A stretch of 40,232 nt of DNA from a virus, in IMG/VR virus record IMGVR_UViG_3300031566_000143, positions 1 to 40,232 of that record. The stretch is one strand, 5' to 3'. The position numbers and the translations under genes are program-made. Below are positions 1,042 through 39,232 of this stretch, piece by piece. Numbering within the stretch: position 1 is the stretch's first letter; every line of letters begins with the position of its first letter. The notes beneath the pieces were generated by a model. That model was not told the origin of the DNA and did not search any database. It saw only the letters and a list, made by a program, of their open reading frames with translations.

Positions 1042-1872
1042 TCAGCCAATGCCTCCAGAAACGCGCTGTGAACTGCACACGAAGCCCCGGCGGTCCGGGC
1101 TGTCCTCTGTGTGCTCTTGGCCGCCGGCCACTGCCACAGCATCAGCGACAGCGGCCCGATGGACATTTGCAGACAGCGGATCCCCTCGACCGGCTCGACG
1201 AGCTGGGTAAACGGCTGCCACCCCGCCCTCCCCTCTATCGTTGAATAGGTCCGCGCCGAGCACTGCCTCTCTCATCTCGTCCCAGTTCTGATTCCGACTC
1301 AGTGTCGTGCTGTCGACCGAGTCGGCCCCTATTTCCCGCGCCCATCTGATACGGTCGCGCGTGCCCACGCCGCCGATATGCGCCTGCTTGCCTACGTCAT
1401 GCGCGAATTCGACCCACATCTGCGCGGTTGCCAGCTTCCAGGCCATAGTGCCGCCGACGAAAATATGGGTGAACCGCTCAAGATGGTATGGCGTGAGGTC
1501 CTGCGGAAGCATCCCGTCCTGCACGGCAAGCGCCAGCCGCGGCGCTGTCAACAGTTGCCCGTAGGCCCAGCCGACGCTAAAGCCGAGAGACGCGCGGCCG
1601 CCGGCGACGATGTCAGGGGCGACTATGAAGTCGACGCTGAGACCCCATCGGTGCGCCCCCTCAATGGCTTTGAGGAACGCGCCCTCATCGAACGGAAGCC
1701 CCCGTTTCCAGCATCCCCAGGCGCCGTTGTCGAGCGCGCACCGCACGCCCCTCATCTGCCCCCAGCGCTTGCTCGGGCTCCAGCTGCGGGAACTCGAAAG
1801 CATGACGCCACATCCCAACTCGCGCACGTGCTCCAGCCCCTTACCGACCATCGCTCCGATGTAAATCAGCAT
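1042..1872 (-). CDS. TGT/DpdA-like guanine transglycosylase (phage type)
   Basis: Members of the tRNA-guanine transglycosylase superfamily swap guanine for a 7-deazaguanine base. Short phage members related to DpdA act on DNA. In this 276-aa protein I see an LDNGAW motif (about residues 47-52), FIVAPD (82-87), LAVQDG (115-120), HIFVGGTMAWKL (136-147) and GADSVDSTTLSRN (182-194). The last aligns by eye with GxDxxDxxxPTRN of TGT, which places D187 at the catalytic nucleophile. The Cys3-His zinc site of tRNA-type TGT is absent. Start at 1872 is chosen because GGAAGAGAG precedes it; the frame is open up to 1929. The last ~70 residues are low-complexity, and another frame looks more protein-like there (see findings). 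No preQ0 synthesis gene lies in the window. Confidence 0.72.
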   Translation of the reverse strand: MLIYIGAMVGKGLEHVRELGCGVMLSSSRSWSPSKRWGQMRGVRCALDNGAWGCWKRGLPFDEGAFLKAIEGAHRWGLSVDFIVAPDIVAGGRASLGFSVGWAYGQLLTAPRLALAVQDGMLPQDLTPYHLERFTHIFVGGTMAWKLATAQMWVEFAHDVGKQAHIGGVGTRDRIRWAREIGADSVDSTTLSRNQNWDEMREAVLGADLFNDRGEGGVAAVYPARRAGRGDPLSANVHRAAVADAVAVAGGQEHTEDSPDRRGFVCSSQRVSGGIG

Positions 1873-2990: not shown

Positions 2991-3359
2991 TCAGGAGCTG
3001 GGGGGGTGCTCCCGGACGCGTCTTAGAATATCATCAGCGCGCTCGCGGCCCTGGGCGACCAGTTCGTTGTTCTCCCCGCTCCGGCGGTGCGCGAGATAGA
3101 ACGCCTCGAGGTCGGTCAGGCTGAACCGCCACGCGCCTCCCCACTTGGCCCCTCGCAGCTCTCCCGAGCGGGCGAGCTCCCGGACCTGGTACTCGGACGT
3201 CTTGAGCAGCTTGGCCGCCTCGGCAACGGTGAGCAGGGGATTGACCACGTGGTGGATCCCCCCGGTGCGGTAGTTCTCGAGGAGAAATTCGCCCCTGCTG
3301 CCCTTCTCGCGCAGCAGCCGCCCCTCGATTACCTTCCCGGCCCTCATCACTCCAGGCAT
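2991..3359 (-). CDS. Excisionase-like helix-turn-helix DNA-binding protein
   Basis: This 122-aa protein carries a central HTH of the MerR/excisionase (HTH_17) type: NPLLTVAEAAKLLKTSEYQV, then RELARSGELRGAKWGGAWRF and a DLEAFY recognition tail (about residues 40-90). Such proteins bend DNA at att sites or act as small regulators. Being one gene from the Cro-like repressor and ~1.5 kb from integrase and attP, it is the best candidate for the excisionase that reverses integration. ATG 3359 is used; an in-frame ATG four codons later is possible. The N-terminal 40 residues are basic and without a recognisable domain. Confidence 0.72.
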   Translation of the reverse strand: MPGVMRAGKVIEGRLLREKGSRGEFLLENYRTGGIHHVVNPLLTVAEAAKLLKTSEYQVRELARSGELRGAKWGGAWRFSLTDLEAFYLAHRRSGENNELVAQGRERADDILRRVREHPPSS

Positions 3360-3385
3360 CCGGTCCCCCGCACCGCAGCGCTGCG

Positions 3386-3610
3386 CTACGGCTCGGCCTC
3401 AAAAAAATACTCGATCCTCCGCCCCAGGCGTCCCGCGTAGACCGCGAGGATGTCCGCCTTCGGCTGGGTTTTGCCCGTCAGGTGATTTTTGACCGTCGCT
3501 GCGTCCACTCCGGCCGCCGCGGCCAGCTGGGTTGGCGTGACGCCCGCCCGGGCGACCGCGGCCGCAAGACGCTGCACGCTGTACCTTACACCGTACCTCT
3601 TCCCCTCCAT
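3386..3610 (-). CDS. Cro-like HTH repressor
   Basis: This 74-aa protein contains an XRE-type HTH: GVTPTQLAAAAGVDAATVKNHLTGKTQPKADIL. The start at 3610 has GGAGGG just upstream. An earlier in-frame GTG at 3631 lies almost on the predicted transcription start and is less likely. It is the first gene of the early leftward transcript and is divergent from the CI-like gene, the classical cro position. It probably competes for operators in 3632-3778 to favour lytic growth. The short C-terminus (RRIEYFFEAEP) may mediate dimerisation. Confidence 0.78.
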   Translation of the reverse strand: MEGKRYGVRYSVQRLAAAVARAGVTPTQLAAAAGVDAATVKNHLTGKTQPKADILAVYAGRLGRRIEYFFEAEP

Positions 3611-3640
3611 GATTCCCTCCACGCGCCGCACCGCAGCGGT

Positions 3641-3668
3641 ATGGTACAGTGTTCTTTCGGCGCGTCAA
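3641..3668 (-). promoter_or_regulatory. Predicted early leftward promoter (PR-like)
   Basis: On the minus strand TTGACG (3668-3663) and TACCAT (3646-3641) are separated by 16 bases. The predicted start near 3634 would drive the cro-like gene. The -10 overlaps a GGTATGGT repeat that recurs by the CI promoter. Confidence 0.55.
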
Positions 3669-3700
3669 GGGGAAATCTAAAGTTTTTTCACAAATAATTC

Positions 3701-3728
3701 TTGACCGCTCCGGTGCGCTCGCTATAAC
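3701..3728 (+). promoter_or_regulatory. Predicted repressor promoter (PRM-like)
   Basis: TTGACC (3701-3706) and TATAAC (3723-3728) with a 16-base spacer form a near-consensus sigma70 promoter. Transcription would begin near 3735, about 45 bases before the repressor ATG. Confidence 0.7.
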
Positions 3729-3778
3729 ACCCTCCTGGGGTATGGTCACGGTTTCGGGTCCCACGTAGCAGGTCACTC

Positions 3779-4465
3779 ATGGCAGCAGCGCCGCGGTTCG
3801 GAGAGATCATCAGGCAGTACCGCACGCGCGCCGGTCTCGGGCAGCGGGAGCTCGGCGAGAGGATCGGCGTCTCGGAGTCGTGGGTCGCGGCGATCGAGGC
3901 CGAGCGCCACCGGCCGACCATCGAGCGCCTCGAGCAGCTGGTCGTGGCGCTCGGATGCACGTCAGGGGAAGCCGGGGAGCTCAGGGAGTTGAACCTGAGC
4001 CTGCGCGCCAACAGGGAGGGCCGCGAGCTCGCGGAGATCCTCATGGCGCGCGCGGGGAGCGCGGGGCAGAGGGGGACCGAGGGCGTCGTTCGCCACCGGT
4101 TTGTTCCGGTCCTTATTCTGGCTGTCGGGGAAGATCCGCGACTTGGAGGTGGTATCGTGACCGAGAGGTACCCGGTCGCCGAAGACACCGGCGACGAAGA
4201 GCTGTTTCTGTGGAGTGTCATTGGGGACGGGATGGCACCGCGACTGTCGGCCGGGACGCTTGTAGTCGTCTCGCCGGGTACGCAGCTGCGCGCGGGGGCG
4301 CCGGCGCTCTGTATGCTCACGAGCGGGCTCGTCTGTGCGCTGTGGAGCGGCGAGGGCGACAAGTGCCGCCTGGGCTTTCTTAACCCGGACCATCCCGCGC
4401 GCCTGGTCCCGCGCGACGAGGTCGTCTGGTGCTACGCTATCGTCAAGGCCTACGTGGACGTCTAA
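3779..4465 (+). CDS. CI-like phage repressor with degenerate S24 domain
   Basis: This 228-aa protein should maintain lysogeny. Residues ~8-62 form an XRE HTH (GLGQRELGERIGVSESWVAAIEAE). Residues ~140-228 resemble the LexA/CI S24 peptidase fold (ELFLWSVIGDGMAP, then SAGTLVVVSPG, then LGFLNPDHPARLV). In active members the motif is GDSM and a Lys follows about 37 residues later. Here the Ser position is Gly151 (codon GGG, 4229-4231) and the Lys region reads CALWSG, so both dyad residues appear lost. RecA-stimulated self-cleavage is unlikely; induction may need an antirepressor or another signal. It has its own promoter and is divergent from the Cro-like gene. Confidence 0.85.
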   Translation: MAAAPRFGEIIRQYRTRAGLGQRELGERIGVSESWVAAIEAERHRPTIERLEQLVVALGCTSGEAGELRELNLSLRANREGRELAEILMARAGSAGQRGTEGVVRHRFVPVLILAVGEDPRLGGGIVTERYPVAEDTGDEELFLWSVIGDGMAPRLSAGTLVVVSPGTQLRAGAPALCMLTSGLVCALWSGEGDKCRLGFLNPDHPARLVPRDEVVWCYAIVKAYVDV

Positions 4466-4472
4466 GCTGTCT

Positions 4473-4491
4473 TGTGGAAGTTTTGTGGAAG
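4473..4491 (+). repeat. Left arm-type integrase sites (P arm), two TGTGGAAG repeats
   Basis: TGTGGAAG occurs at 4473-4480 and 4484-4491, in the same orientation and 11 bp apart, one helical turn. The same pair with the same spacing occurs on the other side of the tRNA-like core (4738-4756). Tyrosine integrases of the lambda class bind such arm sites with their N-terminal domain. Confidence 0.7.
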
Positions 4492-4634
4492 AAAGCGCCT
4501 CCAGGGGCCGCTGCACCGCCACACAGCCCGACGCCTCCCAACGGGGCGACGGCGGACCTAACCCCTTCGGGGGCCGCTGGTTGTCACTCAACGCCCGCGC
4601 CCGTCGAGACTTACGCCGGACGCCCCGAAACGTT

Positions 4635-4679
4635 TTCCTAAACCGGGGGTCGCAGGTTCGAATCCTGCCGGGCGTACCA
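4635..4679 (+). other. attP core: 3' half of tRNA-Arg(CCT)
   Basis: The segment has the anticodon loop TTCCTAA (CCT at 4637-4639), anticodon stem 3' strand ACCGG, a 5-base variable loop, a perfect T-arm (GCAGG, TTCGAAT, CCTGC), the acceptor 3' strand CGGGCGT, discriminator A and CCA. The upstream half is not a tRNA: the D-arm is lacking and the anticodon stem 5' strand mismatches. Phages that integrate into tRNA genes carry just this 3' half in attP, so that the gene is restored on integration. The predicted attB is the host tRNA-Arg(CCT). Confidence 0.8.
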
Positions 4680-4705
4680 TTTAACTTCTAACGAGAACGC
4701 GACTT

Positions 4706-5869
4706 ATGGCAAGGGGCAGAAAAGCCGCCGACGGGCCTGTGGAAGAATTGTGGAAGGGTCGCATCGTAAAGGTGGGCCGCGTGTCGGTATACCGGCGGGG
4801 GAGATGGTACCACTGCTACTTTCATCTGGACGGAAAACGACACCGCGAACAACTCGACACCGACGACGCGCGAGTCGCCCTTGAAACCGCCAGGACGGTC
4901 GACGCCAGCCTGGGGCACGAACGCCCCTCAGAGGTCATGCGTTCCCTGGCCGACCGCGCGGCCGGCGTTCCCTCGCTCCGCGTCTCCGCGCTGATGGATG
5001 CCCTCGAGGCCAACCGCAAGGCGGCCGGACTCAGCAAGTCCTATCTCAGCTGGCTCGGCTGGCGCCGGCGCCAGGCCCAGGGGCTCCTCGGCTCGCTCAA
5101 GGTCCGCAGTATCGCCCGCGCCGACTGCGAGGGTGTCCTCTCGGCCGTCACGGGCCGGCGGGGCATGGCTCAGTATCTTCGCACTCTCCTACGCTTCGCT
5201 GTGGCCGTCGGCTACATCGACCGCTCGCCGATGTCGGACGTCCGCGTGCCGGCGCCGGGCCGCAGCCGGCTCCCGATGCCCTTCCACGGCGCGCCCAACG
5301 TCCCGCAGTATCTCCTGCCCGGGCAGGTCGCGGAGTACCGCGGGGTCTTTGCCGGCACGCTGCTCGATGGCCCCTATCTCCTGGGCCTCTACGCCGGGTT
5401 GCGCCTCCAGGAGATTGTGTTCCTGGAGTGGCCGCGCGTGAGCCTGCGGTCGCACACGCTTCAGGTCGCGGCGGTCGGCGAGTGGCGCCCGAAATCGAGA
5501 CAGGCCCGGACGCTCCCGTTACACGCCGAGCTCTACGCGTGGCTGTCGGCACACCGAAAGCGGTGGGGACCCGTCTGTCCCTCCCCGGAAGGAAAGCGCT
5601 GGCAGCCGCGCAACCTGCGGCGCAAGGCCGATATGATTATTGACGCGGAAAACAGGCGGCGAAAGGCGGACAACCCGAGGGCGCGAACCTTAAAGCGGCT
5701 GGGCTTTCACACGCTCCGGCACACCTTTGCCGTCGCGGCTGCCGGCGCGGGGATCCCCCTTACCACCATCCAGGCGTGGCTCGGGCACGCCGACCTCTCG
5801 ACCACCCAGCTCTACGCCCATTTTTCGCCGGCATACCAGCGCGAGGGCATCGAGCGCGTCGCGTTCTGA
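4706..5869 (+). CDS. int: Tyrosine site-specific integrase
   Basis: This 387-aa recombinase catalyses attP x attB integration. The N-terminal ~70 residues form a beta-rich arm-binding domain (VSVYRRGRWYHCYFHLDGKRHREQL). A SAM-like core-binding domain follows (about 90-175), then the catalytic domain. Catalytic residues are visible: R233 (LYAGLRLQEI), K263 (RPKSRQARTL), H335/R338 (FHTLRHTF), H361 (WLGHADLSTTQLY) and nucleophile Y370. It starts 26 bases after the attP core. Its first codons contain the right-hand arm repeats, so VEELWK is encoded by binding sites. No strong Shine-Dalgarno precedes ATG 4706; a GTG at 4783 with AAGGTGGG is an alternative start. The 3' end overlaps the glycosyltransferase frame on the other strand. 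Confidence 0.95.
   Translation: MARGRKAADGPVEELWKGRIVKVGRVSVYRRGRWYHCYFHLDGKRHREQLDTDDARVALETARTVDASLGHERPSEVMRSLADRAAGVPSLRVSALMDALEANRKAAGLSKSYLSWLGWRRRQAQGLLGSLKVRSIARADCEGVLSAVTGRRGMAQYLRTLLRFAVAVGYIDRSPMSDVRVPAPGRSRLPMPFHGAPNVPQYLLPGQVAEYRGVFAGTLLDGPYLLGLYAGLRLQEIVFLEWPRVSLRSHTLQVAAVGEWRPKSRQARTLPLHAELYAWLSAHRKRWGPVCPSPEGKRWQPRNLRRKADMIIDAENRRRKADNPRARTLKRLGFHTLRHTFAVAAAGAGIPLTTIQAWLGHADLSTTQLYAHFSPAYQREGIERVAF
4738..4756 (+). repeat. Right arm-type integrase sites (P' arm) inside int
   Basis: TGTGGAAG occurs at 4738-4745 and 4749-4756, again 11 bp apart and in the same orientation as the left pair. It lies 59 bp beyond the core within the first codons of the integrase gene, so integrase binding here could also reduce its own expression. 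Confidence 0.68.
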
Positions 5870-6985
5870 CCTGCGCCCCATCAGCCACACCAGGCACAGG
5901 CTCCCCGGAAAATAGAGGCCGAGCTCCAGCGGCCCCAGGTACGCCGGCACCGGCCTGTTGATGCTGAAGAAGGTACCCAGCGTCAGCAGCGCGCACCACC
6001 ATGCGACCGGTCGGAACCACTGCGCCCTGCGCGCGGCCACGAGCCCCGCGGCGAAGAGCGGCAGGACCGGCCAGGCGGGTACGGCGGTCCGCGTGAACTC
6101 GAGCCAGCCCATCGGTCCCGTCCACTCCTGCCGCATCCCGATGATATGCAGCCTGCGCTGGATCATATCGAGAAGCGGCTGGTACGGAGGGACGCCGCCC
6201 ATAAAGACGACCGGGTTCAAGAGCGAGAACGCCACGAGGGAAACGCCGATCGCCGCCAGGGGCTTGACGAGCCTGTCGCGTCCGCGGCAGTACGCGACCA
6301 GGTAGCCGACCAGCGCAAGCACCATGAGGGCCCCGTTGAGCTTCGCGCCCGTGGCCAGGCCCGCCAGCGCCCCCAGGTAGAGGACCACCTTGAGGCTGGT
6401 CGCCTCGGCGCGAAGATGCCAGTACGTCCAGGCGGCAAGCATCGCCGCCATCGCAAACGCGAGGAGCGCATCGGGGCCGGCGCGCGCGACCACATCAAAC
6501 ACCTGTATCTTCGAGAACGCCAGCGGGACGACGGCCAGCGCGGCCCAGGCCGAGGCCCTGGCCGTCCCGACAGAGCACCCCAGCGCCATGCGCGCGGTCA
6601 GCCACAGGAGCGCCAGCGTCGCCAGGTAAGCCGCGACGTTGACCGACCGCATTACCATGACGCCCTGCCAGGGAGGCAGGCGCCCCTCGAGGATGTTCTG
6701 CGCGTGCGACTTGCTGTAGTCCGCCCGCGGGCAGGGGAGCTCCGTCAGCCGCGACAGCCGCAGCGCGGCGCCGTAGGCCCAGCGGTTGACCGCCGGGACG
6801 TCCACCGCCGCGTTGTAGAGCCACCCGCCATACGGCCGGCACTCCGCCGGCCAGCGGCACGACCGCAGGTACCACAGGTTCTCGTCGAACGGCCTCAGCG
6901 GCGTCGCCATCGTCTGCCACAGCAGCAGCAGGCCGTAGAGCACGGCCAGAGCGGGAAGGGCTACTCGTCTAACGGCCTGTCTCAT
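5690..6985 (-). CDS. Membrane glycosyltransferase, GT39/ArnT-PMT (GT-C) type
   Basis: This 431-aa protein has roughly nine or ten hydrophobic segments. TM1 (ALPALAVLYGLLLLW) is followed by the short loop RPFDENLWY, whose Asp-Glu pair is the usual GT-C catalytic motif. AGLATGAKLNGALM and SKIQVFDVVARAGPDALLAF are typical of PMT-like enzymes, which transfer a sugar from a lipid-phosphate donor to a protein or glycan outside the membrane. Start 6985 is preferred (GGGGGA upstream); ATG 7015 lies almost on the predicted transcription start. The last ~60 codons are antisense to int and become hydrophilic, so the original C-terminus may have been lost. With its own promoter it looks like a lysogenic-conversion gene that alters the host surface. 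Confidence 0.75.
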   Translation of the reverse strand: MRQAVRRVALPALAVLYGLLLLWQTMATPLRPFDENLWYLRSCRWPAECRPYGGWLYNAAVDVPAVNRWAYGAALRLSRLTELPCPRADYSKSHAQNILEGRLPPWQGVMVMRSVNVAAYLATLALLWLTARMALGCSVGTARASAWAALAVVPLAFSKIQVFDVVARAGPDALLAFAMAAMLAAWTYWHLRAEATSLKVVLYLGALAGLATGAKLNGALMVLALVGYLVAYCRGRDRLVKPLAAIGVSLVAFSLLNPVVFMGGVPPYQPLLDMIQRRLHIIGMRQEWTGPMGWLEFTRTAVPAWPVLPLFAAGLVAARRAQWFRPVAWWCALLTLGTFFSINRPVPAYLGPLELGLYFPGSLCLVWLMGRRSERDALDALALVCRRKMGVELGGREVGVPEPRLDGGKGDPRAGSRDGKGVPERVKAQPL

Positions 6986-7025
6986 TTCCGCGTCCCCCAA
7001 TATGAGAAAGCGCATACGCCGGAAG

Positions 7026-7054
7026 TTTATACGCGCCACGGAAAGAAACGTCAA
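7026..7054 (-). promoter_or_regulatory. Near-consensus sigma70 promoter for the glycosyltransferase gene
   Basis: On the minus strand TTGACG (7054-7049), a 17-base spacer and TATAAA (7031-7026) lie directly after the stop of the giant gene. Transcription should begin near 7019, giving a ~34-base leader to ATG 6985. An independent promoter within a long operon is typical of moron genes expressed in the lysogen. Confidence 0.72.
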
Positions 7055-7064
7055 GAGAAAAACT

Positions 7065-10000
7065 TCAGCGGCTGCGGGATCCCCGGCCCCGCCGGCCCCT
7101 GCCCGCCGTCTCGGGCTCCTCTTCCAGGGCGCCTTTCGTCCAGATGAGCTCCAGCGGCTTGCCCCTGCGGATTGCCCTCTCGGCCTGCACGAAGTAAGGC
7201 GTGGGGACGCCGGCGATCTTGCCGAAGCCCTCGGCGGCGCGTTCGAGCGCCAGGATGAAGTCCGCGCTCTGTACCATGTCCAGGACATTCCCCCCGCGCT
7301 CGACGGCGCGCCTGGCCGACGACGCGGCCTTCAAGAGGTCGTCGACGGACGCAAAAAGCGGACTGGCCTGGTAGCCCCAGGGCTCCTTGAGGAGCCGGTC
7401 GAAGATCGTCTGCGCGAGCTGTCCGAACACCAGCACGTTGTTGAGCGGTCCGAGAATGAGCGGCCTGAGCTGCCGGCGGGGCCGGTACTTCAACCCGTCG
7501 GCCAGCAGCTGAAACAACGAGGGCAGGACGACCCACACGAGTATCAGGTTGGAGAGCGCCTTGACCCTGGATCCCCGGCCGTACCGCAGCGCCCGGGCGT
7601 AGGTGGCCTCGCTGCGAAAATACTTGTTGAGCTGCGACTGGAACATCGTGAACATCTTGGCCCAGGACCCGCCGCGCTGGAGGGAGCTCAGCGTCTCGAC
7701 GTTCGACGTGGGCTGGGTCCTTTCTGTGACCCTCTCGGCAAAGCGCCACGCCTGGGCCTCGGACTTGCCCGTCTTGAGGGCGTAGCGGTACGCCGCCCAG
7801 GCGCCCTGCATCACCGCGAGCTGGTCGCCCTGGCGCGTCAGCAAAAGGTAGAGGTCCTCGACGCTCCCCTTGCCGCTTGCGACCCTCGCGGCGCGGCGGC
7901 GCCCGCGGCCGGCCAGTGCCGCCCGTATGTCCCTCTCGAAGCCCGCGCGGAACCGCTCGGCAATGAGAGGCGACCCCTCGATAAGGTGCCGGTAGTGGTC
8001 CAACGGCGCCCTCCAGAAGTCGGCAACGCCCTGGAAGAACCGGCCGGCAGGCATCTCCAGCATATACGCCAGGACGCTCGGGACCTGCTTTGCCGCTATG
8101 ACGGGCTTGAACCCCAGCAGGGCCTTGATGGCGTTGCGCCGCAGCCAGTCGAGCACAAAGACGCTGCGGGCCCGCGTGACGCCGTCGCGCGCTATGTCGT
8201 TGAGGAAGTCGTCGACCTTGGCGAGGACGTCCGCGCCGCGGTACTGCCGTATGGCCTCGCGGACGTCCCTGTGCTGGAAGAGGCGCCTCATCTCCCGGAC
8301 CGGCACCGCGAAAGCCCGGTAGTGCTCCATCTGGAGGATATGGTTGACGAGGGTGCCCGTCGCGGACGTGTACATGAGCGGGTGCAGGTTGGGCACGCGG
8401 GTTTTCAGGGAGCGGCTCGTGACGGCCGCGTAGCGGCTGGTCTCCTGGCCCATGAGCACGTTTTCCGGGATCCCCGCCTCGACGTCCCTGGAGATCGGCG
8501 AGTAATGCCTGTTGTGGGGCAGGTTGACGCCGTTCATGTCGCGCCACACCGCGTTAACGCCGTGGTAGTATCGCTGGTAGAACGCGAGCTGCCACCGGCC
8601 CCAGGCCTTCTCCTCGTCGCTCAGGCCCCCCTCGATGGCCTTCAGCATTTTCGGAGTGAGGGCGTTGCCCCTCGGGTGCATGAGGGTCTCCGTCAGGGTC
8701 GGGTCGTGCATCTCCTCCCACTTTTTCAGCATCTGCTCGGCGGTCAGCTTCAGGCGGACGAGCTCGCCCCGGGCGTTGACGAACTCGCCCAGGTCGAGTT
8801 CGACCATCTCCATCGTGTTGAGTATGCGGTTGAGCTCGCCGGTGTCCTGTGTGCCGAACACGACCTCGAGGCCGACCCGGACCTCCTTAAAGACGTCCAT
8901 CGTCCCCCGGGCCTGCTCCGTGCGCGCATCGTGGATCACGTTCGTCAGCTCGAAGAGGGCGCCCTCGTACGGTTTATGGCCGCGCTCGCGCTGGGAGAGC
9001 TTCTCTATAAGCTCGTCCCAGCCGTACTGCGCGTTGAGGAACTTGTCGAGCCAGGTCCGCTGCGCCTCGCGCTGGGCGCGCGGGATCGTGCCGGCGCCGG
9101 GCTTGAGGCCTTTGCCCTCCGTAATGACGCCAACGGCGACCTCGGCGTTGCGCTCGGTGTTCTCGCGCGCCAGCTGGCGCTTGGCCTCGGCCAGGCCCAG
9201 CCCCGACCTCTTGATATGCCGGATCTCCTCCAGGGCCCAGGCCGCCTCCTCCGCGGTCATCTGGTTAGTCCCCCACAGCTTCATCCGCTCGATCTTGTCC
9301 ATCATGTCGTCGTAGGACGCCGGCGTGCCCCCCTGGGGCGACTCGTAAGCCTCTATGGCGGCGTCGATGGAGGCGCGGACCTGGTCGCGGTCGTCGTTGC
9401 GGTGCGCGCGGATGTCCTCCAGCTTCTCCTCGACGTCCGCGGTCCGGCGCCCCTGGAGGTATCCCCTCTCCCCGCTGCGGGGCTTGCCCCTGGCGAGCTC
9501 CCGCTGTATCAGCCCGCGCAGGTCCCGGGCCTGCTCCTGCTCGGCCATCTTCTGCCCCAGGGTCATTACCTTTTCCAGGCCCTTCTTGGTCGTGACCTTG
9601 TCCAGGTGGGGCAGCAGCCGGCCGCGGGTTTTAGTTCCGACGTGCTTTTTCAGGAACTCGGCCAGGGCGGCGCGCAGCTCCTTCTGCCTGACCTTCTCGT
9701 CCATGAACTGCTTGCGGACCTTCGCCGCCGCGTCCTGGGCGGCTTCCTTGCGGATGAACTCCTCGGCCTGCTTGAAGTCGCTCCTCACGTGCGCGAGCGC
9801 GCGGCGGGCGTCGCGTACCTTCTTCTGGAGCTGCTCGCGCGCCACCGACTCGCCGGCCTGGCCGGCCTTGCGTACTGCGGCGAGGACCTTCGCGCGCAGC
9901 GACTCGGTAATAAACGTGCGTTTCGTCCTGGTCTTCGTGGAGGGCCGCAGCAGGGAGCTCTCTATGTCCGCCTCAGTGGCCCCCTGCTCCATTGCGACGT

Positions 10001-13000
10001 CCACGAGCGTAGAGTTGATCTCCTCCAGCGTGTAACCCTCTTTCAGCCCGGAGTATTTTGCCCAGGCGAACTCCAGGCCCGCGTCCCCCATCTCGAGGGC
10101 CTGGTCGAGCGCGTAGGCGTTCACGTTCCCGTATTTGCGCTTGGCGGTGACGACCTGGTCGAGGAGCTCCAGGAACGTCTCGATTGACTCCCCGCCCCGA
10201 CCCATGGCGTCAAGCGTCTCGTCCCACCCCTTCTCGGTGCCGACCGCGCGGTCGCTGCGGATGATATGCCGCCAGAGGTACTGCCGCCCGCCCTTCTCGC
10301 CGGGTCGGCCGACAAACTGCATTACCTCGCCCTTCCACTCCGGTATGCCGATCCGGTAGCGGGTGTGCGCGTTGATCCCCTCGATCCCCCCGACGCCCTC
10401 GCCCGCTCCCTCGGCGCCGACGAGCATCTCCCTGTAAGACCAATTCTTCAAAATCTCCTGCTCGGCCTCCCGGACCATCGACGCGCGGGTCTGGACCGAG
10501 ACCTCCCGCGGCGGCTCCAAGAGGCGCGCCAGGTCCTCGACGATCTGTTCGATGGGGGCGCGCCGCGCGGCGGTCTCCGCGGCCTCCTGGTCGGTCTCCG
10601 CGGGCGCCGCCGGCGTCTTGGGCGCGGGCTCGAGGGGCAGCTCGCCGCCGGCCTCGCGGACCTGGAAGCCGGGCAAGCTCTCTCCGCCGGCCAGACCGAG
10701 CCACTTTTCTATCGCCGCGGCCACGTTCGGCGCGTGTTGTTCACCGCGGGCTGCCTGGTCTCGCGCCCATTCAAGCGCCTCTTGCGCCGCCGCCGCGACG
10801 GCCTCGTCTCGGGTCTCATAGCCTTCGTCCCTGCTCGAGGGGCCCATGAGCGCGCCGCTGTGTGACCCGTAATGCTGCTCCAGTTCTACGCCCCAATGCC
10901 AGCGCCGGTCCTTGTACCCCTTGACGACGCGCAGAGTAACCTCGGTCCTGTAGGACTTGGGCAGCCGGATATGTATCTTCTCGCTCCGCGTGAAGGCCCC
11001 GTACTCGTTCGGCGCCTCTCCTTCCGGCGCCGGCGGCTCTTGCTCCTCGCGCTCCCACCGCGCCAGCTTTTCCATGAACTCGCGGCGGTCTTGTGCCACG
11101 GCCTCGGACTCGGCCGCTTGCTCCGCGGCCTCGGCCGTCGGCGGCTCCGCCAAGAGTCCGCGCTTCGGCGGCGCGTCTCTCAGGGCGAAATACGCCTCCC
11201 CCCGTGCGTCCCACATGACCGCGAAATAGTCCCTCATGTCCTGGGCGACCAGCCTTGTCAGAAACGCCCTCGACTCGGCCTTCCTCGGCTGGAGCTTGCG
11301 GGCGAGGACCTCTATACGTTGCCAGGGTCTCTTCGCCAGGGCGGCCGCGGCAGGCTGGAGATACCGGCGTGCGAGGTTTTTCGCCGTCGCGCTATTGCCC
11401 CCCTGCTCCATTTCCTTACGCACGAACTCGTCGAACATCTCCCTCTCGGCAATCTGCGAGAGTCTCTCCTGGGCCCAGGGCTGGGCGCGATACTCGAGAA
11501 GTACCTCTCGCGGCACGCTTTCCCCGTCGCGCAGCGCTTTCTGCAGGACGTCGCTGTGTTCTACCTTGCCCCCCTTCGCGTCGACGCCGTAGTAGAGCCA
11601 CTTGCGGACGGGGTGGGTGCCTCTATCAGACCGCCAGGGGTGCCGGACCCTGCCGCTCTCCCACTCGGCACGCGTCATCTCCCAGGGTTCTTTCCCCTCG
11701 ACCTCCGCTCGCGCCGCCTGCGCGGCGGCGACCTGGGGCGGTAACGGCTCTTCTTTCTCGACCTGCGCCTCGGCCCTTTTGCGCCCCGCCTCCCTCTCCC
11801 TGGCGCCCAACCACGCGGCGACTTCTCCCTCGGCTTCGGGCGCCGCGGACCGAGGCGCCTCGGCAAACCCCAGGTCGGCCGGCCTCAGCTTCTGCCACTT
11901 GTCGGCCAGGGCCCTCGCGGCGTTATACAGGAGCGTCGTTGCGCGGCCCACGCCGGCGCGGCGGTCGTTGTAGAAGTTCTCCGCCGCGACGTCGAGGTCG
12001 TCGGAGATCTGCCCCTTCATCGACGCGAGCTGCCTGACCATTCTTGCCGTCTCGTCGTCCCCCCGTTCCCGCAGCTCCCTCTCCGCCTGGCGCAGGAGCG
12101 CCTTGCGCTCCTTCCCGAGATGCCTGGGTGCCTCCTCCCCGCCGAAAAGCGTCTCCCTCTTCTCCTCGACGATGGGCCCGGGCTCGGTCTCCTCGAGGCC
12201 GCCGGCAAAGAGTGACGGCGCGGGCTCACCGGGCCTGGCCGGTCGGCGCCGGCGCTCGGCTATCGGCCTTCCAAAGAGGTCCACCGGCCCCGCCGCCTCG
12301 GCCGGCCTTTCCTTCTCCGGCTCCTGGCCGAAAAGCCCCGCCTGGCGGACCTGGAAAGAGGGGAACCCCACGCGCAGCGCCGAGTCCTTCATGGCCGGCG
12401 TAAGTGGGAAGCCCCAAGCGGGCGCACCCGACGAGACCTTTGTGAGGAGGACCTTGCCGCCGAAGCGCTTGACGAGCTTGCGCGCGGTGTTGACGAGGAC
12501 CTTGTCGTAAAACTCCGCCAGGCCGCCGGCCCCCACCTCTATGCCTTCTCGCTCTATGACGATGGTGTGCGTCGGGTCCGACTCTATGGCCTGGAGTACC
12601 TCCGGCCCGAGCTGTCCGCCCAGGCCCGCGACGAGGGCCTGCCGGGATGGAAAGCTCCAGCTTTGGACCAACGCATTCGGCGCCCCGGTCCGGTAGCGCT
12701 CGCCCGCGGATTGGTACAGTTCGACGCGATAGACTCCCTCCCTGGTGCGCGAGGCCTCGATCATGTTCCCGCGGTAGGTCTGGCCCCACCGCTGGTTCTG
12801 CTGCGCCCCCGTCGTCCAGGCCACCATGTCGTAATCGTTCTCGGCCGCCCACCGTATCATCCGCTTCAGGCACAGTTCGGGCCAGGTGTGGCGGAAGGGG
12901 GCGTCTGGCACGCCGCCCACTTGGCGCGCCGTCATCTGGCGCGCGGCCTTTTCTTGCGCTTCGGCGTCAGTGTCGGCGTACACGGTCAGCGTGCCGTTCG

Positions 13001-16000
13001 TCGGGTGCCTGACGATGTAGGCATATCGCCCCGCTCGGGCCAGCGCGTGTGGCGTCCAAAGGCCCGGGCTCCGCTCGACCACGGTCCACTCCTCCGGACG
13101 CGACTTGACGATATACCCGTCCTCCCTGCCCTGCTGGTGGAGGTCGCTCTGGATCTCCTCGATAAAGAGGACCTGCCGGCCCGCCTCGTCGGTGGTCCTG
13201 TCGAAACGCACGTGCGCGACGACGCCCTGTTCTGTCCAGTGCGGCTGCTCGTAGTCCATCGCCTCGTCTACGCGAAGGAGCAGCTCCGTGTAGTGGGGGC
13301 CCGCGCCCATGAGCGTGTATTCAGGGTATTGTACTCTCCTGTCCTCGGGGGCCTCCGCGGCCGTTTCCTCCCAGAACTGCACCATCCAATGAGCGGCCTG
13401 GTCCCAGGCGTGGCTTACGTTGTAGGCCGTGATTCGCCAGGCCGCGATCTGGTCGAGCTCGCCATACGGGCGCAGCTCGTACCTGCCGCGGCCTTTCTCT
13501 ACCACTTCAACGGGTATGTCGATCGAGTCCGTCCGCCAGACGCCGGGGTGTTCCTCGTACCAGGCGAAGTCCTTCTCCTTCGGCGGTTTCTCGTACTTCT
13601 CGAGCTCGTCGACGATGATCTCGTTCTGGCGCATGGCCGTAAGGAGCTCGTCCTTGCTGACCATCCCGTCCCTGGTGAGCTTGCCAAGCGAGCTCCCGAG
13701 CTCCGTCCAGAATATCTCCTCCTCCTTGACGCCGGCGTTCTGGACCATCCTCATGACCTCGTCGGGGCGCGCCCGCTCGCCCATCTTTTCCTCGAGGACG
13801 CGCAGGAGTTTCGAGTAGAACACCGGGGCGAAGTCGGCCTCCTCGGCCCTGACCTGGTAGGACGGCCACAGGCGCCCCTGCGTGCGCTGCTCGAAGGGAG
13901 GGGTCGCCGGGCCTGGGGGCTGTATTTCGCGCGAGGGAGGCGCTTCAGCGCCGAAGGCTTGACGCCAGAGGTCTTCGAGCCATATTGGGTGGGCCGTCGC
14001 CCGGAAGGTCCGTATACGCGCCAGGAGCGCCCGCAGGGACGCCCTCGCGCGCTCGAAGAGATGCCGGATCGGGCCGACGCGCTCGTGGAGCTTTTTCGAG
14101 AAGATAAAGACGGCCCCCTCGTCGCTGAAGTGCTCGCTTACCCGCCTGGGGTCCTGTGTGGCGGCGTGCCACTGTTCGACGCGGCGCTGCTCGGCCGCGG
14201 GCAGGCGCCTCCAGAACCGTTCCAGAAATTCATGTACGGCCGTTTCCGCGTCGGCCCCCTGCAACAGGCGCACGGTCGTCTGAAGCACGCCGGCCTGGAG
14301 CTTGGCCTCAGTTACGCCGTGGACCTCGTACTTGACGCCCGGGCGCGGGACGATGCCCTCGGCCGCGAGGATCTCCGGCGTCGCCTCCATCACCGAGGAG
14401 AGGATCTCGAGCCGGCTGTTCTCGTCGAAGTCGGGGGCGACCTTCAAGAGGTAGCGCAACAGGCGCGCCTCGCCCGCGGAGATCCTCCCGCGCTGGCGCG
14501 CCTCGCCGACCTGGTAGGCCGCGCCGCCCCCGCGCACCTGGCGCCCCGCTGCGGGGGCACGATAAACGTAGAACTCGCCCTCGCGGACATAGCCTTCTGG
14601 CAGGGCTAACGGGTGTCCGCCTCCCAATGGCGACGCCTGCGCCGCGTTCACATTGTCAAACAGCTCGGCATTTATTCGTTCGCGTCGTTCCATGCCCTCT
14701 TTGAGATTCGCTCGGGCGCCTGTCAGAACAAGGACATCTTCCCCTTGAGCCCTGGTGAATAGAACATTGCCTTCGGCGTCGTAGCGAAAAGGAGCGCGTC
14801 CCTCCTGAACGGCTTTCGTACCGTGTTCTCCACGGGCAACTCTGCGATCTAAGTCCCAATGCGCGTGTTCTTCTGGCGTCATCTCCCACGGCTGCTTCTC
14901 GGCCTTCGCTTCCGCACGGCCAGGGCGCCGGCTTATGTGGTCGGGCGGGCCCAATTCCGCTGCCCCAGGAGCCGGCGCCTCCGCCGCCGCGGGCTGCGGC
15001 GCAACACCCGGCGGCGGCGGTTGCGGCTTCCGCTTCCTGACGAGGCGCGCTTCCTTCTCGTCGATGAAGAGCTTGCCCATGCCGGCCTGTACGATCCACC
15101 CGCGCTTGCCCTCCCCCAGGTCGACGAACTTCTCGGCCCAGCCGCGCCCTCGTTCGCCCTGTATGAAATCCCCGACCTCGATTACCTGTCCTGGTGTTTG
15201 AAGTGCTCCACCTGGGCCAGGCGCTTCACGGCCTTCGCCTTCGACGGGTAGGGGCCCCCCAGGTTCTTGCCCTTGTGGCTCCTCACGTGCCACCCGTCCT
15301 TTTCCTTCCGTACCATACTGACCTCCTCTCGGGACTATGCGCCCCGCTCGTACCTCGACCTCCGCCCCGGGCAGGCGCACCGTTTCCGCAGGCACGATTT
15401 CCGGGACGGGGTAGCTGACTGCCTTGGGCGAGACGACGCCGGCCGGCGCCGCGCCCATTTGGAGCTGACTGACGCCTCGCGCCGCCCTGCCCTCGAGCGC
15501 GCGGTCTATGCGAGAGGCGCGCCTCTCGGCCTGAGCGCGGGCCTTCTGGACCTGGCGCGCGCCTCCGACGGCGGTTGTGACGTCCACGCCCTGCCCGAAG
15601 GCCATGAGCACCGGGATGGAAAGCCCGGCGTCCACGAGCTCGCTGACGCCGGCGCGCATCTGGCCTTCGAAGTCGATGTCCAGGGGCCTGCCGGACGCGC
15701 GGGAGGCGTAGCTGGCCGCCGCCTGGGTGCCGAGTTCGACGGCCTTCTGCGCGACCTCTTCGGACCATTCTTTCCCCAGGACGACCGCGGCCTTCCCCGC
15801 GCTCTTGACTATCTGCCCCATCACCGACTTCGCGTAAGCCTGCCTGAACGCCTTCAGCGCGCCAGCGGCGAGGCCCGTCGGCATCATCTGTCTGACCTGG
15901 AGGTCCTCGATTACCGCCTCGGCCACAGCGGCCCCCAGGGCGAATATGTTCGCCTGGACGGGTTCCATCCCCGCCGCCAGGAGCTGCCTCCTCCTGTCCG

Positions 16001-16688
16001 GCCAAATCTGCGTCACCCAGAACGCCGTCCCGCCCATCGGGGCCCCCGCCGCGGCGACGCCGCCGTACAACATCGCCGGGGCCATCCTCGCGGCGCCGAA
16101 GACGCCCCTGCCGACGAGCTGGCCGACGGCGCCCGTGTCCGGCTCGGGCTTTACCGGGCGCAGCTCGTCTTTCAGTGCCTGGTAGACCTTCTGCGACTCG
16201 ATTTTCCCGGGCGTCCACCCCTGGAGGGCTCCCTTGCCGCCCGCGATCTGCCCCGTCGCGAGTTGGATGAACTCGATTTCATTGGTGCCCAGGTCGACAT
16301 AGCCGCGCTCGACCTGGTCGGCGATCTTGCCCAGGACGCTGCGGGCCTCAGGCTCGGCCAGCACGCGCGCGGTCTGCTGTGCGTGCTCGAGCTCGGCGTC
16401 TCGTTGGATGGCGGGGGCGTTCATGACACCGTAGGCGAGCTGCGGCTGCGGGCCTCCCTGCCACGGCGCCGTGCCGGAAAGCCCCTCGGTGAGGTCGAGG
16501 GCGCCCGGCGGCCCCACCGGCAGGGCCGCGGCGACCGCCGGCTGGCCGTATCCGAACTCCAGGGGCGCCAGGCGATTGACCTCCGGGGTGTCCAGGGACG
16601 CCAGGCGGTTGCGCTCGGGCTTGTCGAGTGACGCCAGGCGGTTTTCCTCCGGCTCGTCCTCGACGAGGCTTTGAAGGCGGTTGGTCAC
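7065..16688 (-). CDS. Giant polyvalent virion protein (3207 aa)
   Basis: Such multi-domain proteins are packaged and ejected with phage DNA. Four NRLxxL repeats open the protein (residues 3-43), then hydrophobic helices (~190-340). A module PWEMTxxE occurs near residues 596 and 1668. A zincin-like segment near 815 reads VHEFLERF in place of HExxH. Residues ~940-1450 match a domain common in phage polyvalent proteins (GPHYTELLL, VLFIEEIQSDLHQQ, KRMIRWAAENDYD, AWTTG). A Lys/Glu-rich helical region follows (~2100-2700). The C-terminus resembles the LPD38-type domain (PLDHYRHLIEGSPL, MFQSQLNKYF) with a hydrophobic stretch near 3050. The GTG start overlaps the previous stop by four bases. DNA protection or transfer during ejection is the likely role; no enzyme activity is certain. 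Confidence 0.85.
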   Translation of the reverse strand: MTNRLQSLVEDEPEENRLASLDKPERNRLASLDTPEVNRLAPLEFGYGQPAVAAALPVGPPGALDLTEGLSGTAPWQGGPQPQLAYGVMNAPAIQRDAELEHAQQTARVLAEPEARSVLGKIADQVERGYVDLGTNEIEFIQLATGQIAGGKGALQGWTPGKIESQKVYQALKDELRPVKPEPDTGAVGQLVGRGVFGAARMAPAMLYGGVAAAGAPMGGTAFWVTQIWPDRRRQLLAAGMEPVQANIFALGAAVAEAVIEDLQVRQMMPTGLAAGALKAFRQAYAKSVMGQIVKSAGKAAVVLGKEWSEEVAQKAVELGTQAAASYASRASGRPLDIDFEGQMRAGVSELVDAGLSIPVLMAFGQGVDVTTAVGGARQVQKARAQAERRASRIDRALEGRAARGVSQLQMGAAPAGVVSPKAVSYPVPEIVPAETVRLPGAEVEVRAGRIVPRGGQYGTEGKGRVAREEPQGQEPGGPLPVEGEGREAPGPGGALQTPGQVIEVGDFIQGERGRGWAEKFVDLGEGKRGWIVQAGMGKLFIDEKEARLVRKRKPQPPPPGVAPQPAAAEAPAPGAAELGPPDHISRRPGRAEAKAEKQPWEMTPEEHAHWDLDRRVARGEHGTKAVQEGRAPFRYDAEGNVLFTRAQGEDVLVLTGARANLKEGMERRERINAELFDNVNAAQASPLGGGHPLALPEGYVREGEFYVYRAPAAGRQVRGGGAAYQVGEARQRGRISAGEARLLRYLLKVAPDFDENSRLEILSSVMEATPEILAAEGIVPRPGVKYEVHGVTEAKLQAGVLQTTVRLLQGADAETAVHEFLERFWRRLPAAEQRRVEQWHAATQDPRRVSEHFSDEGAVFIFSKKLHERVGPIRHLFERARASLRALLARIRTFRATAHPIWLEDLWRQAFGAEAPPSREIQPPGPATPPFEQRTQGRLWPSYQVRAEEADFAPVFYSKLLRVLEEKMGERARPDEVMRMVQNAGVKEEEIFWTELGSSLGKLTRDGMVSKDELLTAMRQNEIIVDELEKYEKPPKEKDFAWYEEHPGVWRTDSIDIPVEVVEKGRGRYELRPYGELDQIAAWRITAYNVSHAWDQAAHWMVQFWEETAAEAPEDRRVQYPEYTLMGAGPHYTELLLRVDEAMDYEQPHWTEQGVVAHVRFDRTTDEAGRQVLFIEEIQSDLHQQGREDGYIVKSRPEEWTVVERSPGLWTPHALARAGRYAYIVRHPTNGTLTVYADTDAEAQEKAARQMTARQVGGVPDAPFRHTWPELCLKRMIRWAAENDYDMVAWTTGAQQNQRWGQTYRGNMIEASRTREGVYRVELYQSAGERYRTGAPNALVQSWSFPSRQALVAGLGGQLGPEVLQAIESDPTHTIVIEREGIEVGAGGLAEFYDKVLVNTARKLVKRFGGKVLLTKVSSGAPAWGFPLTPAMKDSALRVGFPSFQVRQAGLFGQEPEKERPAEAAGPVDLFGRPIAERRRRPARPGEPAPSLFAGGLEETEPGPIVEEKRETLFGGEEAPRHLGKERKALLRQAERELRERGDDETARMVRQLASMKGQISDDLDVAAENFYNDRRAGVGRATTLLYNAARALADKWQKLRPADLGFAEAPRSAAPEAEGEVAAWLGAREREAGRKRAEAQVEKEEPLPPQVAAAQAARAEVEGKEPWEMTRAEWESGRVRHPWRSDRGTHPVRKWLYYGVDAKGGKVEHSDVLQKALRDGESVPREVLLEYRAQPWAQERLSQIAEREMFDEFVRKEMEQGGNSATAKNLARRYLQPAAAALAKRPWQRIEVLARKLQPRKAESRAFLTRLVAQDMRDYFAVMWDARGEAYFALRDAPPKRGLLAEPPTAEAAEQAAESEAVAQDRREFMEKLARWEREEQEPPAPEGEAPNEYGAFTRSEKIHIRLPKSYRTEVTLRVVKGYKDRRWHWGVELEQHYGSHSGALMGPSSRDEGYETRDEAVAAAAQEALEWARDQAARGEQHAPNVAAAIEKWLGLAGGESLPGFQVREAGGELPLEPAPKTPAAPAETDQEAAETAARRAPIEQIVEDLARLLEPPREVSVQTRASMVREAEQEILKNWSYREMLVGAEGAGEGVGGIEGINAHTRYRIGIPEWKGEVMQFVGRPGEKGGRQYLWRHIIRSDRAVGTEKGWDETLDAMGRGGESIETFLELLDQVVTAKRKYGNVNAYALDQALEMGDAGLEFAWAKYSGLKEGYTLEEINSTLVDVAMEQGATEADIESSLLRPSTKTRTKRTFITESLRAKVLAAVRKAGQAGESVAREQLQKKVRDARRALAHVRSDFKQAEEFIRKEAAQDAAAKVRKQFMDEKVRQKELRAALAEFLKKHVGTKTRGRLLPHLDKVTTKKGLEKVMTLGQKMAEQEQARDLRGLIQRELARGKPRSGERGYLQGRRTADVEEKLEDIRAHRNDDRDQVRASIDAAIEAYESPQGGTPASYDDMMDKIERMKLWGTNQMTAEEAAWALEEIRHIKRSGLGLAEAKRQLARENTERNAEVAVGVITEGKGLKPGAGTIPRAQREAQRTWLDKFLNAQYGWDELIEKLSQRERGHKPYEGALFELTNVIHDARTEQARGTMDVFKEVRVGLEVVFGTQDTGELNRILNTMEMVELDLGEFVNARGELVRLKLTAEQMLKKWEEMHDPTLTETLMHPRGNALTPKMLKAIEGGLSDEEKAWGRWQLAFYQRYYHGVNAVWRDMNGVNLPHNRHYSPISRDVEAGIPENVLMGQETSRYAAVTSRSLKTRVPNLHPLMYTSATGTLVNHILQMEHYRAFAVPVREMRRLFQHRDVREAIRQYRGADVLAKVDDFLNDIARDGVTRARSVFVLDWLRRNAIKALLGFKPVIAAKQVPSVLAYMLEMPAGRFFQGVADFWRAPLDHYRHLIEGSPLIAERFRAGFERDIRAALAGRGRRRAARVASGKGSVEDLYLLLTRQGDQLAVMQGAWAAYRYALKTGKSEAQAWRFAERVTERTQPTSNVETLSSLQRGGSWAKMFTMFQSQLNKYFRSEATYARALRYGRGSRVKALSNLILVWVVLPSLFQLLADGLKYRPRRQLRPLILGPLNNVLVFGQLAQTIFDRLLKEPWGYQASPLFASVDDLLKAASSARRAVERGGNVLDMVQSADFILALERAAEGFGKIAGVPTPYFVQAERAIRRGKPLELIWTKGALEEEPETAGRGRRGRGSRSR

Positions 16689-35988: not shown

Positions 35989-36602
35989 ACCTCACCCACG
36001 AGCGCTTCCCGCACCGCGCACGCCAGTGCATAAGCCGCCGCGACGGGCACGCCCTGTGTGAGGAACCGCGCTTTACTCCGGCGCGCCAGCTGAAAATAGC
36101 CTACCTTGTCCATGTCGAAGTCCTCGGGCAGGTCGAAGGCATCCAGAAGCTGCGGCCAACTCAGATAGCGCCCCGCCCCCTTCGTCGAGTGCGCTTGCTC
36201 GGAGGCGTTCCCCGTGATCGTCCGGTAGGGCTTCTGAGCGGTATCGTCGCCGCTGCACGTAGTCCCGTCCCCGAGTATCGTAAAGTATTCGCCCTCCGCC
36301 CCGTCCCCCCGTCCTATCCTTTCGCGCCACTCGCAGCCCCATGCCCTGCCGATGGAGTTCAGCGTCCTGCCCATGGCCCCCATCTGCCGGCCCATGCCGT
36401 TCAGGAGCACGAGCAGCCTGTCGCTGGGCTTGCACACGGCCTCGGGGATCGTCACCCCTACCTCGCGGGCCGCCGCGTCCACCCGCCGGCGCACGAGGCG
36501 CAGCTCGCGCGCGACGGTCCTCACCGCGTACAGCGAGTAGTCCTCGAGCTCCGCAATCCGCGCCTTCAGCCCCGCCATGTCCTCGTCCTTCGTCTCAGGC
36601 AT
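35985..36602 (-). CDS. MPETK-family protein, paralogue 2 with C-terminal extension (205 aa)
   Basis: ATG 36602 overlaps the ParB-like stop by eight bases. Residues 1-85 are paralogous to the 89-aa protein at 34774-35043. Residues ~100-205 are extra: a Gly/Thr-rich segment (TILGDGTTCSGDDTAQ), a helical part LSWPQLLDAFDLPEDF and an Ala-rich end (VAAAYALACAVREAL). Its stop overlaps the next gene by four bases. Not recognised. The shorter copy may have lost this extension, or this copy may have gained it. Confidence 0.72.
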   Translation of the reverse strand: MPETKDEDMAGLKARIAELEDYSLYAVRTVARELRLVRRRVDAAAREVGVTIPEAVCKPSDRLLVLLNGMGRQMGAMGRTLNSIGRAWGCEWRERIGRGDGAEGEYFTILGDGTTCSGDDTAQKPYRTITGNASEQAHSTKGAGRYLSWPQLLDAFDLPEDFDMDKVGYFQLARRSKARFLTQGVPVAAAYALACAVREALVGEV

Positions 36603-38355: not shown

Positions 38356-38404
38356 GCCCCTACCTCCTCCCTGTCCTCGCGTCACACGGCCACAGACAGT
38401 TTCT

Positions 38405-39232
38405 TCAGATCAACTCGCACGCGGTCTCCTGAACGCGGCATCGAGGCCCTTCCAGCCGGACCACGACGTCGTTCCGCACCATCGTGACGCAAACCAGCTC
38501 CTTGTCCTCCTCCGTCGCCGCGGGCACGGGGTTGGTCCGAGCCTCCCGCAGGCTCTCCGCCATTGCGGCCGCCTGCGGTGGAAGCGCCGTGCCTGCCGGC
38601 GCCTCCTCGTCGTCGCCCCCCTCGAAGTAGTACCCCAGGGGTCCGGCCGTCCGCAGCTTGCCCGGCCAGCGCACGCGGTGCTCGCGTATCAGCCGCCCGA
38701 TGCGCCCCGGCTTCAAGCCCGTCCTCTTGGATATCTCCGTGGACGTCAGCGCGTTGTCGCGCCCCACGGCCTTCTCCAGCTCCAGGAGAATGCGCTCCGC
38801 CTGGGCTGCCTCGTCCTTCTGTCTCTCCATCTGCTCGCTCCTTTCGGGCCTGCGGCCCTCTGACCAACGCCTGTCGCTCGTTTGGCGCCGCGACTCGCGG
38901 CGCTCGCGCCTCTCGCCAACCTCCTCCCGTTCGGTCACCCGCGCGTCCATCTCGACTGCCCTGCAACACATCCGCTCGGCCAGGACGTCCGGAGCCCCCG
39001 GCCCGAACCACTCCCAGTGGTTCTCACGCTTACGCCGCCAGCACATCTTCGCGAAACACCGGGGCTCGGGCGCCACGCCGCCCTTCGGCGCCGGCGCCGC
39101 CTCCCATCCCAGCTGCCCGAATCCGATTGCGTCCCGCTCGGCCCACTGAAAATGGAGCACGGCCTTCGTGCGGTACGCCATCGGCTCGCGGTTGACCTTG
39201 ACCCAAAACTCCTGCGCGGTACTCACCGTCAT
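38405..39232 (-). CDS. Winged-helix regulator-like protein, paralogue 2
   Basis: This 275-aa protein starts at ATG 39232, overlapping the methyltransferase stop by four bases. The N-terminal ~95 residues share AQEFW, FxWxxxxAIGFGQLGW, CFAKMCWRRK and WFGPG with the protein at 35068-35988. An Arg/Glu-rich linker follows, then a winged helix (RDNALTSTEISKRTGLKPGRIGRLIREHRVRWP, GYYFEGGDD). The C-terminus again holds VTMV. The two copies differ in sequence through most of their length, so the duplication is old. A DNA-binding regulator is likely. Confidence 0.7.
   Translation of the reverse strand: MTVSTAQEFWVKVNREPMAYRTKAVLHFQWAERDAIGFGQLGWEAAPAPKGGVAPEPRCFAKMCWRRKRENHWEWFGPGAPDVLAERMCCRAVEMDARVTEREEVGERRERRESRRQTSDRRWSEGRRPERSEQMERQKDEAAQAERILLELEKAVGRDNALTSTEISKRTGLKPGRIGRLIREHRVRWPGKLRTAGPLGYYFEGGDDEEAPAGTALPPQAAAMAESLREARTNPVPAATEEDKELVCVTMVRNDVVVRLEGPRCRVQETACELI

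What the first reader, a model, noticed from the sequence alone, without database searches (positions are those of the whole stretch)
4473..4756. Complete lambda-type attP with phased arm sites on both sides of a tRNA-Arg core
TGTGGAAG occurs as two direct copies 11 bp apart at 4473/4484 and again at 4738/4749, flanking the 45-bp tRNA 3' half at 4635-4679. All four copies share orientation. The symmetry in spacing is hard to explain by chance and gives a full P-core-P' layout that can be read straight from sequence. The right arm lies inside the integrase reading frame, so binding may autoregulate int. An intact attP means this DNA is not an integrated prophage end.
Basis: partly seen in the sequence, partly recalled or inferred. 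Interest (0 to 1): 0.75.

Follow-up and report, generated by a model that had tools for sequence, protein, structure and literature searches.

The report
Ordinary phage attachment site (attP)
This stretch is the docking site with which a temperate phage would insert its DNA into a bacterial arginine-tRNA gene; the layout is clear but of a well-known kind.

Summary
TGTGGAAG occurs exactly four times in the 40-kb window, as two same-orientation pairs with 11-bp period (4473/4484 and 4738/4749); no shuffled control had such a doublet at two places. Between the pairs lies the 3' half of a tRNA-Arg(CCT) gene. It is identical over 43 bp (4634-4676) to a real tRNA gene in a Phycisphaerae MAG, the only exact match of a 40-base probe in the genome-contig scan. 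The match begins at the anticodon loop, so the crossover is probably TTCCTAA (4635-4641). The window is a temperate phage contig. A second contig joins its two ends through 538 bp, so the map is circular and the site is a true attP. Two corrections: the right pair probably lies in the int leader, not inside the gene (better start GTG 4781); and the layout resembles paired-arm attP sites of mycobacteriophages L5, Giles and CrimD more than lambda's, with no IHF-like site found. Integrase binding is inferred, not shown, and has no comparative support here. The host is uncertain: attP carries CCA, the 10 matched sequences of the MAG and its relatives do not. Ordinary in kind.

The parts
4473..4480 (+). 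predicted P-arm integrase site, TGTGGAAG copy 1
   Evidence: exact copy; role inferred from position
4484..4491 (+). predicted P-arm integrase site, TGTGGAAG copy 2, 11 bp from copy 1
   Evidence: exact copy; role inferred
4634..4676 (+). attP common core: 3' half of tRNA-Arg(CCT), 43 bp identical to a tRNA gene in a Phycisphaerae MAG (L003)
4635..4641 (+). predicted 7-bp overlap (strand-exchange region) TTCCTAA = anticodon loop
   Evidence: left edge of the identity block; precedent in PMC8371274 (passages read); inferred
4677..4679 (+). CCA end carried by the phage; not encoded in the matching MAG gene
4738..4745 (+). predicted P'-arm integrase site, TGTGGAAG copy 3
   Evidence: exact copy; role inferred
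4749..4756 (+). predicted P'-arm integrase site, TGTGGAAG copy 4, 11 bp from copy 3
   Evidence: exact copy; role inferred
4781..5869 (+). tyrosine integrase, probable start GTG 4781 (the open frame extends to ATG 4706)
   Evidence: Pfam Phage_integrase E 3e-17; PHROG integrase E 3e-37; start:
3779..4465 (+). repressor-like protein, helix-turn-helix plus S24 peptidase-like domain
   Evidence: (phrog_4, transcriptional repressor)
2991..3359 (-). excisionase-like (Xis) HTH_17 protein, possible directionality factor
   Evidence: TIGR01764 above its cut-off

Best explanation
It is the attP of a temperate tailed phage with a circular map of about 40.8 kb. Its tyrosine integrase would bind the paired TGTGGAAG arm sites with its N-terminal domain and the core with its other domains, and exchange strands in the anticodon loop (4635-4641) of a host tRNA-Arg(CCT) gene. 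The phage's 3' half then completes the tRNA gene, with int downstream in the same direction. Shown: the repeats, the exact tRNA match, the integrase and phage genes, the circular map, and that the predicted junction reads as a tRNA. Inferred: integrase binding to the repeats, the exact crossover, the role of the Xis-like protein, and the host.
For: Repeats far above chance. 43-bp core identical to a real tRNA-Arg(CCT) gene. The integrase start lies 26 bp (ATG 4706) or 101 bp (GTG 4781) after the core. Repressor-like and Xis-like genes close by. Terminase, portal and head protein genes. Window end 40232 is joined through 538 bp to window base 1 in contig IMGVR_UViG_3300031565_007009. Host 5' half plus phage 3' half is read by ARAGORN as tRNA-Arg(cct); attP alone and the predicted opposite junction are not. 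Precedent: two pairs of 11-bp repeats flank the core in CrimD, and Giles and L5 have pairs in direct orientation (PMC3203893, passages).
Against: No relative with the same arm sites was found: 0 of 32 viral loci that hold the doublet encode a relative of this integrase in the DNA held (1.0-14.6 kb each). The two other contigs of this phage that were found do not cover attP. The N-terminal domain matches Pfam Arm-DNA-bind_2 only weakly (E 0.1, 13 bits against a cut-off of 22). The single-sequence structure model is unusable (mean pLDDT 33.7). No IHF-like site with up to 2 mismatches at 4466-4780. No integrated copy was seen, by searches of limited reach.
Confidence: 0.87

Rival explanations
1. 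The core is attP but the TGTGGAAG doublets serve another protein (repressor operators, DnaA-like boxes or replication iterons).
For: Short tandem repeats one helical turn apart also occur in iterons and operators (recalled). The phage has a repressor-like gene and a replication-initiation-like gene.
Against: No exact copy upstream of the repressor gene or near the replication-like gene at 2074-2763 (one copy with one mismatch at 2469); all four exact copies flank the core.
Confidence: 0.09
2. The site is an attL or attR end of an integrated prophage, or a displaced tRNA fragment in host DNA.
For: A tRNA 3' half alone is what a displaced fragment at a prophage end looks like.
Against: Repeat pairs on both sides, phage genes on both sides, and the window's two ends joined in another contig. 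A tandem double lysogen is not excluded.
Confidence: 0.02
3. The repeats are a chance coincidence near a tRNA fragment.
For: TGTGGAAG with up to one mismatch is common in the window (36 matches, 20.5 expected).
Against: 0 of 300 and 0 of 20,000 shuffles give a doublet twice.
Confidence: 0.02

Closest known systems
attP of mycobacteriophages L5, Giles and CrimD (PMC3203893, passages read)
   Same: Pairs of putative arm-type sites flank a common core (11-bp repeats in CrimD); direct orientation in Giles and L5; in the K1 phages the core lies on the 5' side of int.
   Different: CrimD's right pair is inverted and its core is the tmRNA 3' end; L5 has several additional sites. Here four sites, a tRNA-Arg core, another arm sequence and a distant integrase (29.7% identity over 60% of the query to mycobacteriophage integrases).
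Phage Boilgate attP (PMC10865867, passages read)
   Same: 43-bp common core over the 3' half of a tRNA gene, int immediately downstream, a functional tRNA predicted at attL, putative arm sites flanking the core.
   Different: tRNA-Lys(TTT) with five differences from attB; here tRNA-Arg(CCT), no mismatch to the MAG gene.
Phage lambda attP (PMC4880445, passages read)
   Same: P-core-P' order with an integrase that binds two classes of site.
   Different: Lambda has five arm sites and sites for IHF, Xis and Fis; here four arm sites and no IHF-like site found; Xis and Fis sites were not searched for.
KplE1 argW-intS, STI arrangement (PMC2951348, passages read)
   Same: After integration the tRNA gene and int would follow each other in the same direction with P' arm sites before int, a layout in which int autoregulation was shown. 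argW is also a tRNA-Arg gene (recalled).
   Different: No promoter-like site was found near the right pair, so autoregulation is not shown here.

Membership tests
attP of an arm-site-dependent (lambda/L5-like) tyrosine integrase | Tyrosine integrase gene beside the site | tested here: met
attP of an arm-site-dependent (lambda/L5-like) tyrosine integrase | Common core identical to a bacterial site | tested here: met
   43 bp
attP of an arm-site-dependent (lambda/L5-like) tyrosine integrase | Repeated arm-type sites on both sides of the core | tested here: met
   as sequence only
attP of an arm-site-dependent (lambda/L5-like) tyrosine integrase | N-terminal arm-binding domain in the integrase | tested here: inconclusive
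   Arm-DNA-bind_2 E 0.1, below its cut-off; no usable model
attP of an arm-site-dependent (lambda/L5-like) tyrosine integrase | Arm sites bound by the integrase | not testable with these tools
   needs footprinting
Lambda attP in the strict sense | IHF sites between core and arms | tested here: not met
   0 sites with up to 2 mismatches to a recalled consensus at 4466-4780; a host factor of other specificity would be missed
tRNA-dependent lysogeny (PMC10865867) | Phage carries a complete tRNA gene to replace the disrupted one | tested here: not met
   no tRNA gene in the window; 538 bp of the map lie outside it; the predicted junction restores the tRNA

The most novel reading that the evidence does not exclude
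attP sits between the repressor-like gene and int, both in the same direction, and no promoter-like site was found between them. Integration would then cut int off from the repressor's transcript and place it behind the host tRNA-Arg gene, with the P' arm pair in its leader. Integration itself would switch int from repressor-linked to self-limited expression, in a phage of Phycisphaerae.
Probability: 0.2. Interest if true: 0.4.

Novelty: new member of a known kind. Interest (0 to 1): 0.22.

Why it matters
It gives a complete, testable attP and integrase for a phage whose integrase has no close relative in the phage records searched (241 of 241 matching records below 60% identity). If the host is a Phycisphaerae bacterium it could become an integration tool for a group in which I know of few such tools; that last statement is recalled, not searched.

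Tried and rejected
Comparative test of the arm sites: TGTGGAAGNNNTGTGGAAG is in 32 viral loci, but 0 of 32 encode a relative of this integrase in the DNA held, so it gave no support. L002, the one relative found by the integrase search of viral contigs (52% over 42 residues), has single tandem 8-mers in bases 901-2700 but no doublet repeated at a second, separate place there; its integrase start and attP were not determined. Two other contigs of the same phage, L004 and L054, do not cover attP.

Search for an integrated copy or another copy of attP: nothing with core or junction patterns in viral contigs (the tool says that records very near the window may be left out). No integrase match at E 1e-25 or better in 392 genomes of the MAG's phylum; that cut-off was strict and the tool warns that an empty answer shows nothing. 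The MAG itself has three distant integrase-family proteins, best E 3.8e-11, none examined as a lysogen of this phage.

Structure prediction from the single sequence failed (mean pLDDT 33.7), so no fold search was made. The sample numbers were not found in papers. 'Planctomycetes phage' occurred in none of the 8 papers listed of 2,661 holding two of three terms. Three papers hold 'Phycisphaerae', 'prophage' and 'temperate' (listing and start of abstracts only). Repressor-operator and iteron readings were considered and put low. In one search one candidate start (labelled TTG 4751) was mis-indexed, the in-frame TTG being at 4748; I dropped that row and did not score TTG 4748.

Full report
Observation. 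TGTGGAAG is found exactly four times in the window, at 4473, 4484, 4738 and 4749, all on the + strand. The two pairs form 19-bp copies (TGTGGAAGTTTTGTGGAAG and TGTGGAAGAATTGTGGAAG), 89% identical and 265 bp apart. In dinucleotide-preserving shuffles the exact 8-mer occurs 0.73 times on average, at most 4 times (300 shuffles). An 8-mer doublet (period 9-13) repeated at a second place was seen in 0 of 300 whole-window and 0 of 20,000 local shuffles. So the repeats are real and not chance. The distances to the core are not symmetric: site centres lie at -161.5, -150.5, +103.5 and +114.5 from the middle of the anticodon loop.

Core. A 40-base probe from the core (CCTAA to GTA) gave one exact match in the scan of genome contigs (by the tool's description one genome for each of 84,980 species, contigs under 3,000 bases not held): L003, a MAG titled Phycisphaerae bacterium isolate Bin_76R. 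ARAGORN calls a tRNA-Arg(cct) there. Identity with the window extends over 43 bp, 4634-4676. It starts at the last base of the 5' anticodon stem, directly before the 7-base anticodon loop TTCCTAA. The review PMC8371274 (passages read) says that the usually 7-bp anticodon loop and its flanking stem match the 7-bp overlap and core-site layout. I therefore place the crossover at 4635-4641; this is inference. A junction of the MAG's 5' half with the phage's 3' half is read as tRNA-Arg(cct); attP alone and the opposite junction are not.

What the DNA is. G000 is a virus record of 40,232 bases. It holds terminase large and small subunit, portal and major head protein genes, a repressor-like gene (3779-4465), an Xis-like gene (2991-3359) and a tyrosine integrase. 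By eye the integrase keeps the expected motifs (GLR, HTLRH, LGH, final Y; motifs recalled, sequence). Contig IMGVR_UViG_3300031565_007009 (L054) matches window 40232-25276 at 99.96% and window 1045-1 at 98.1%, with 538 bp between the two. The two ends of the window are therefore neighbours, and the map is circular at about 40.8 kb. The first 174 bases of L054 fall outside these alignments and do not resemble window 1046-1219. With attP inside the window and the opposite junction in another contig, no host DNA is needed to close the map. A tandem double lysogen could also contain such a site.

Integrase start. The open frame begins at ATG 4706, which would put the right pair inside the gene. 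GTG 4781 is better supported. Its upstream anti-Shine-Dalgarno energy is -7.8 kcal/mol, against -3.0 for ATG 4706 and -6.0 for GTG 4772. The alignments to SfV-group and Serratia phage integrases begin at residue 25-26 of the long form (11 records covering at least 80%). A weak match to Pfam Arm-DNA-bind_2 begins at residue 3 of the short form (E 0.1, below cut-off). Against this: 5 of the 22 other phage gene starts scored are weaker than -3.0 (range of the 22: -2.1 to -12.3; these starts are first starts of open frames, unverified), and one PHROG profile match begins at residue 6 of the long form. On balance the right pair lies in the int leader, 25 to 43 bases before the start codon.

How it works. 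By precedent, the integrase's N-terminal domain would hold the arm sites while its catalytic part cuts the core (lambda: PMC4880445, passages). Paired arm sites flanking the core are described for CrimD, Giles and L5 (PMC3203893, passages). After integration int would follow the restored tRNA gene in the same direction, the 'STI' shape for which autoregulation of int was shown for KplE1 intS and confirmed for several other integrase genes (PMC2951348, passages). No promoter-like site was found between core and int; the one match in 3300-4900 is at 3668-3641 on the - strand. By eye a further promoter-like pair, TTGACC (3701-3706) and TATAAC (3723-3728), precedes the repressor gene; the scan's rules leave it out. 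So how int is expressed, and whether it is autoregulated, stays open.

Host. Against a firm assignment to Phycisphaerae: attP continues with CCA, but none of the 10 sequences matched with up to 3 mismatches, in 9 of 101 genomes searched (the MAG included), continues with CCA. One of these 10, L019, lacks the usual 5' half. The CCA suggests that the core came from a host that encodes it. For Phycisphaerae: the single exact match and similar G+C (window 0.671; the 8-kb L003 0.668), which is weak. Distant relatives of the capsid protein occur in 4 of 392 genomes of the phylum (28-38% identity), also weak; no other phylum was searched for comparison.

Verdict. A real, well-formed attP of a temperate phage; a new member of a known kind. 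The arm-site role is inferred from position, repetition and precedent, without a binding experiment or comparative support.

Noticed in passing
window 7065-16688 (-): Open frame of 3207 aa with high third-position G+C (0.86), no Pfam match at E 0.001; a very large phage protein of unknown role.
   Followed up: no
window 5690-7288 (-): Protein with a PMT_2 (mannosyltransferase-like) domain beside the integrase, no PHROG match at E 0.01; possibly a surface-modifying cargo gene.
   Followed up: no
window 36595-38385 and 39229-39945 (-): A ParB N-terminal domain protein and a DNA methylase-like protein upstream of the packaging genes.
   Followed up: no
L054 first 174 bases against window 1046-1219: Nearly identical phage contigs diverge abruptly here, which suggests a local replacement between strains.
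   Followed up: partly
   Followed up: partly
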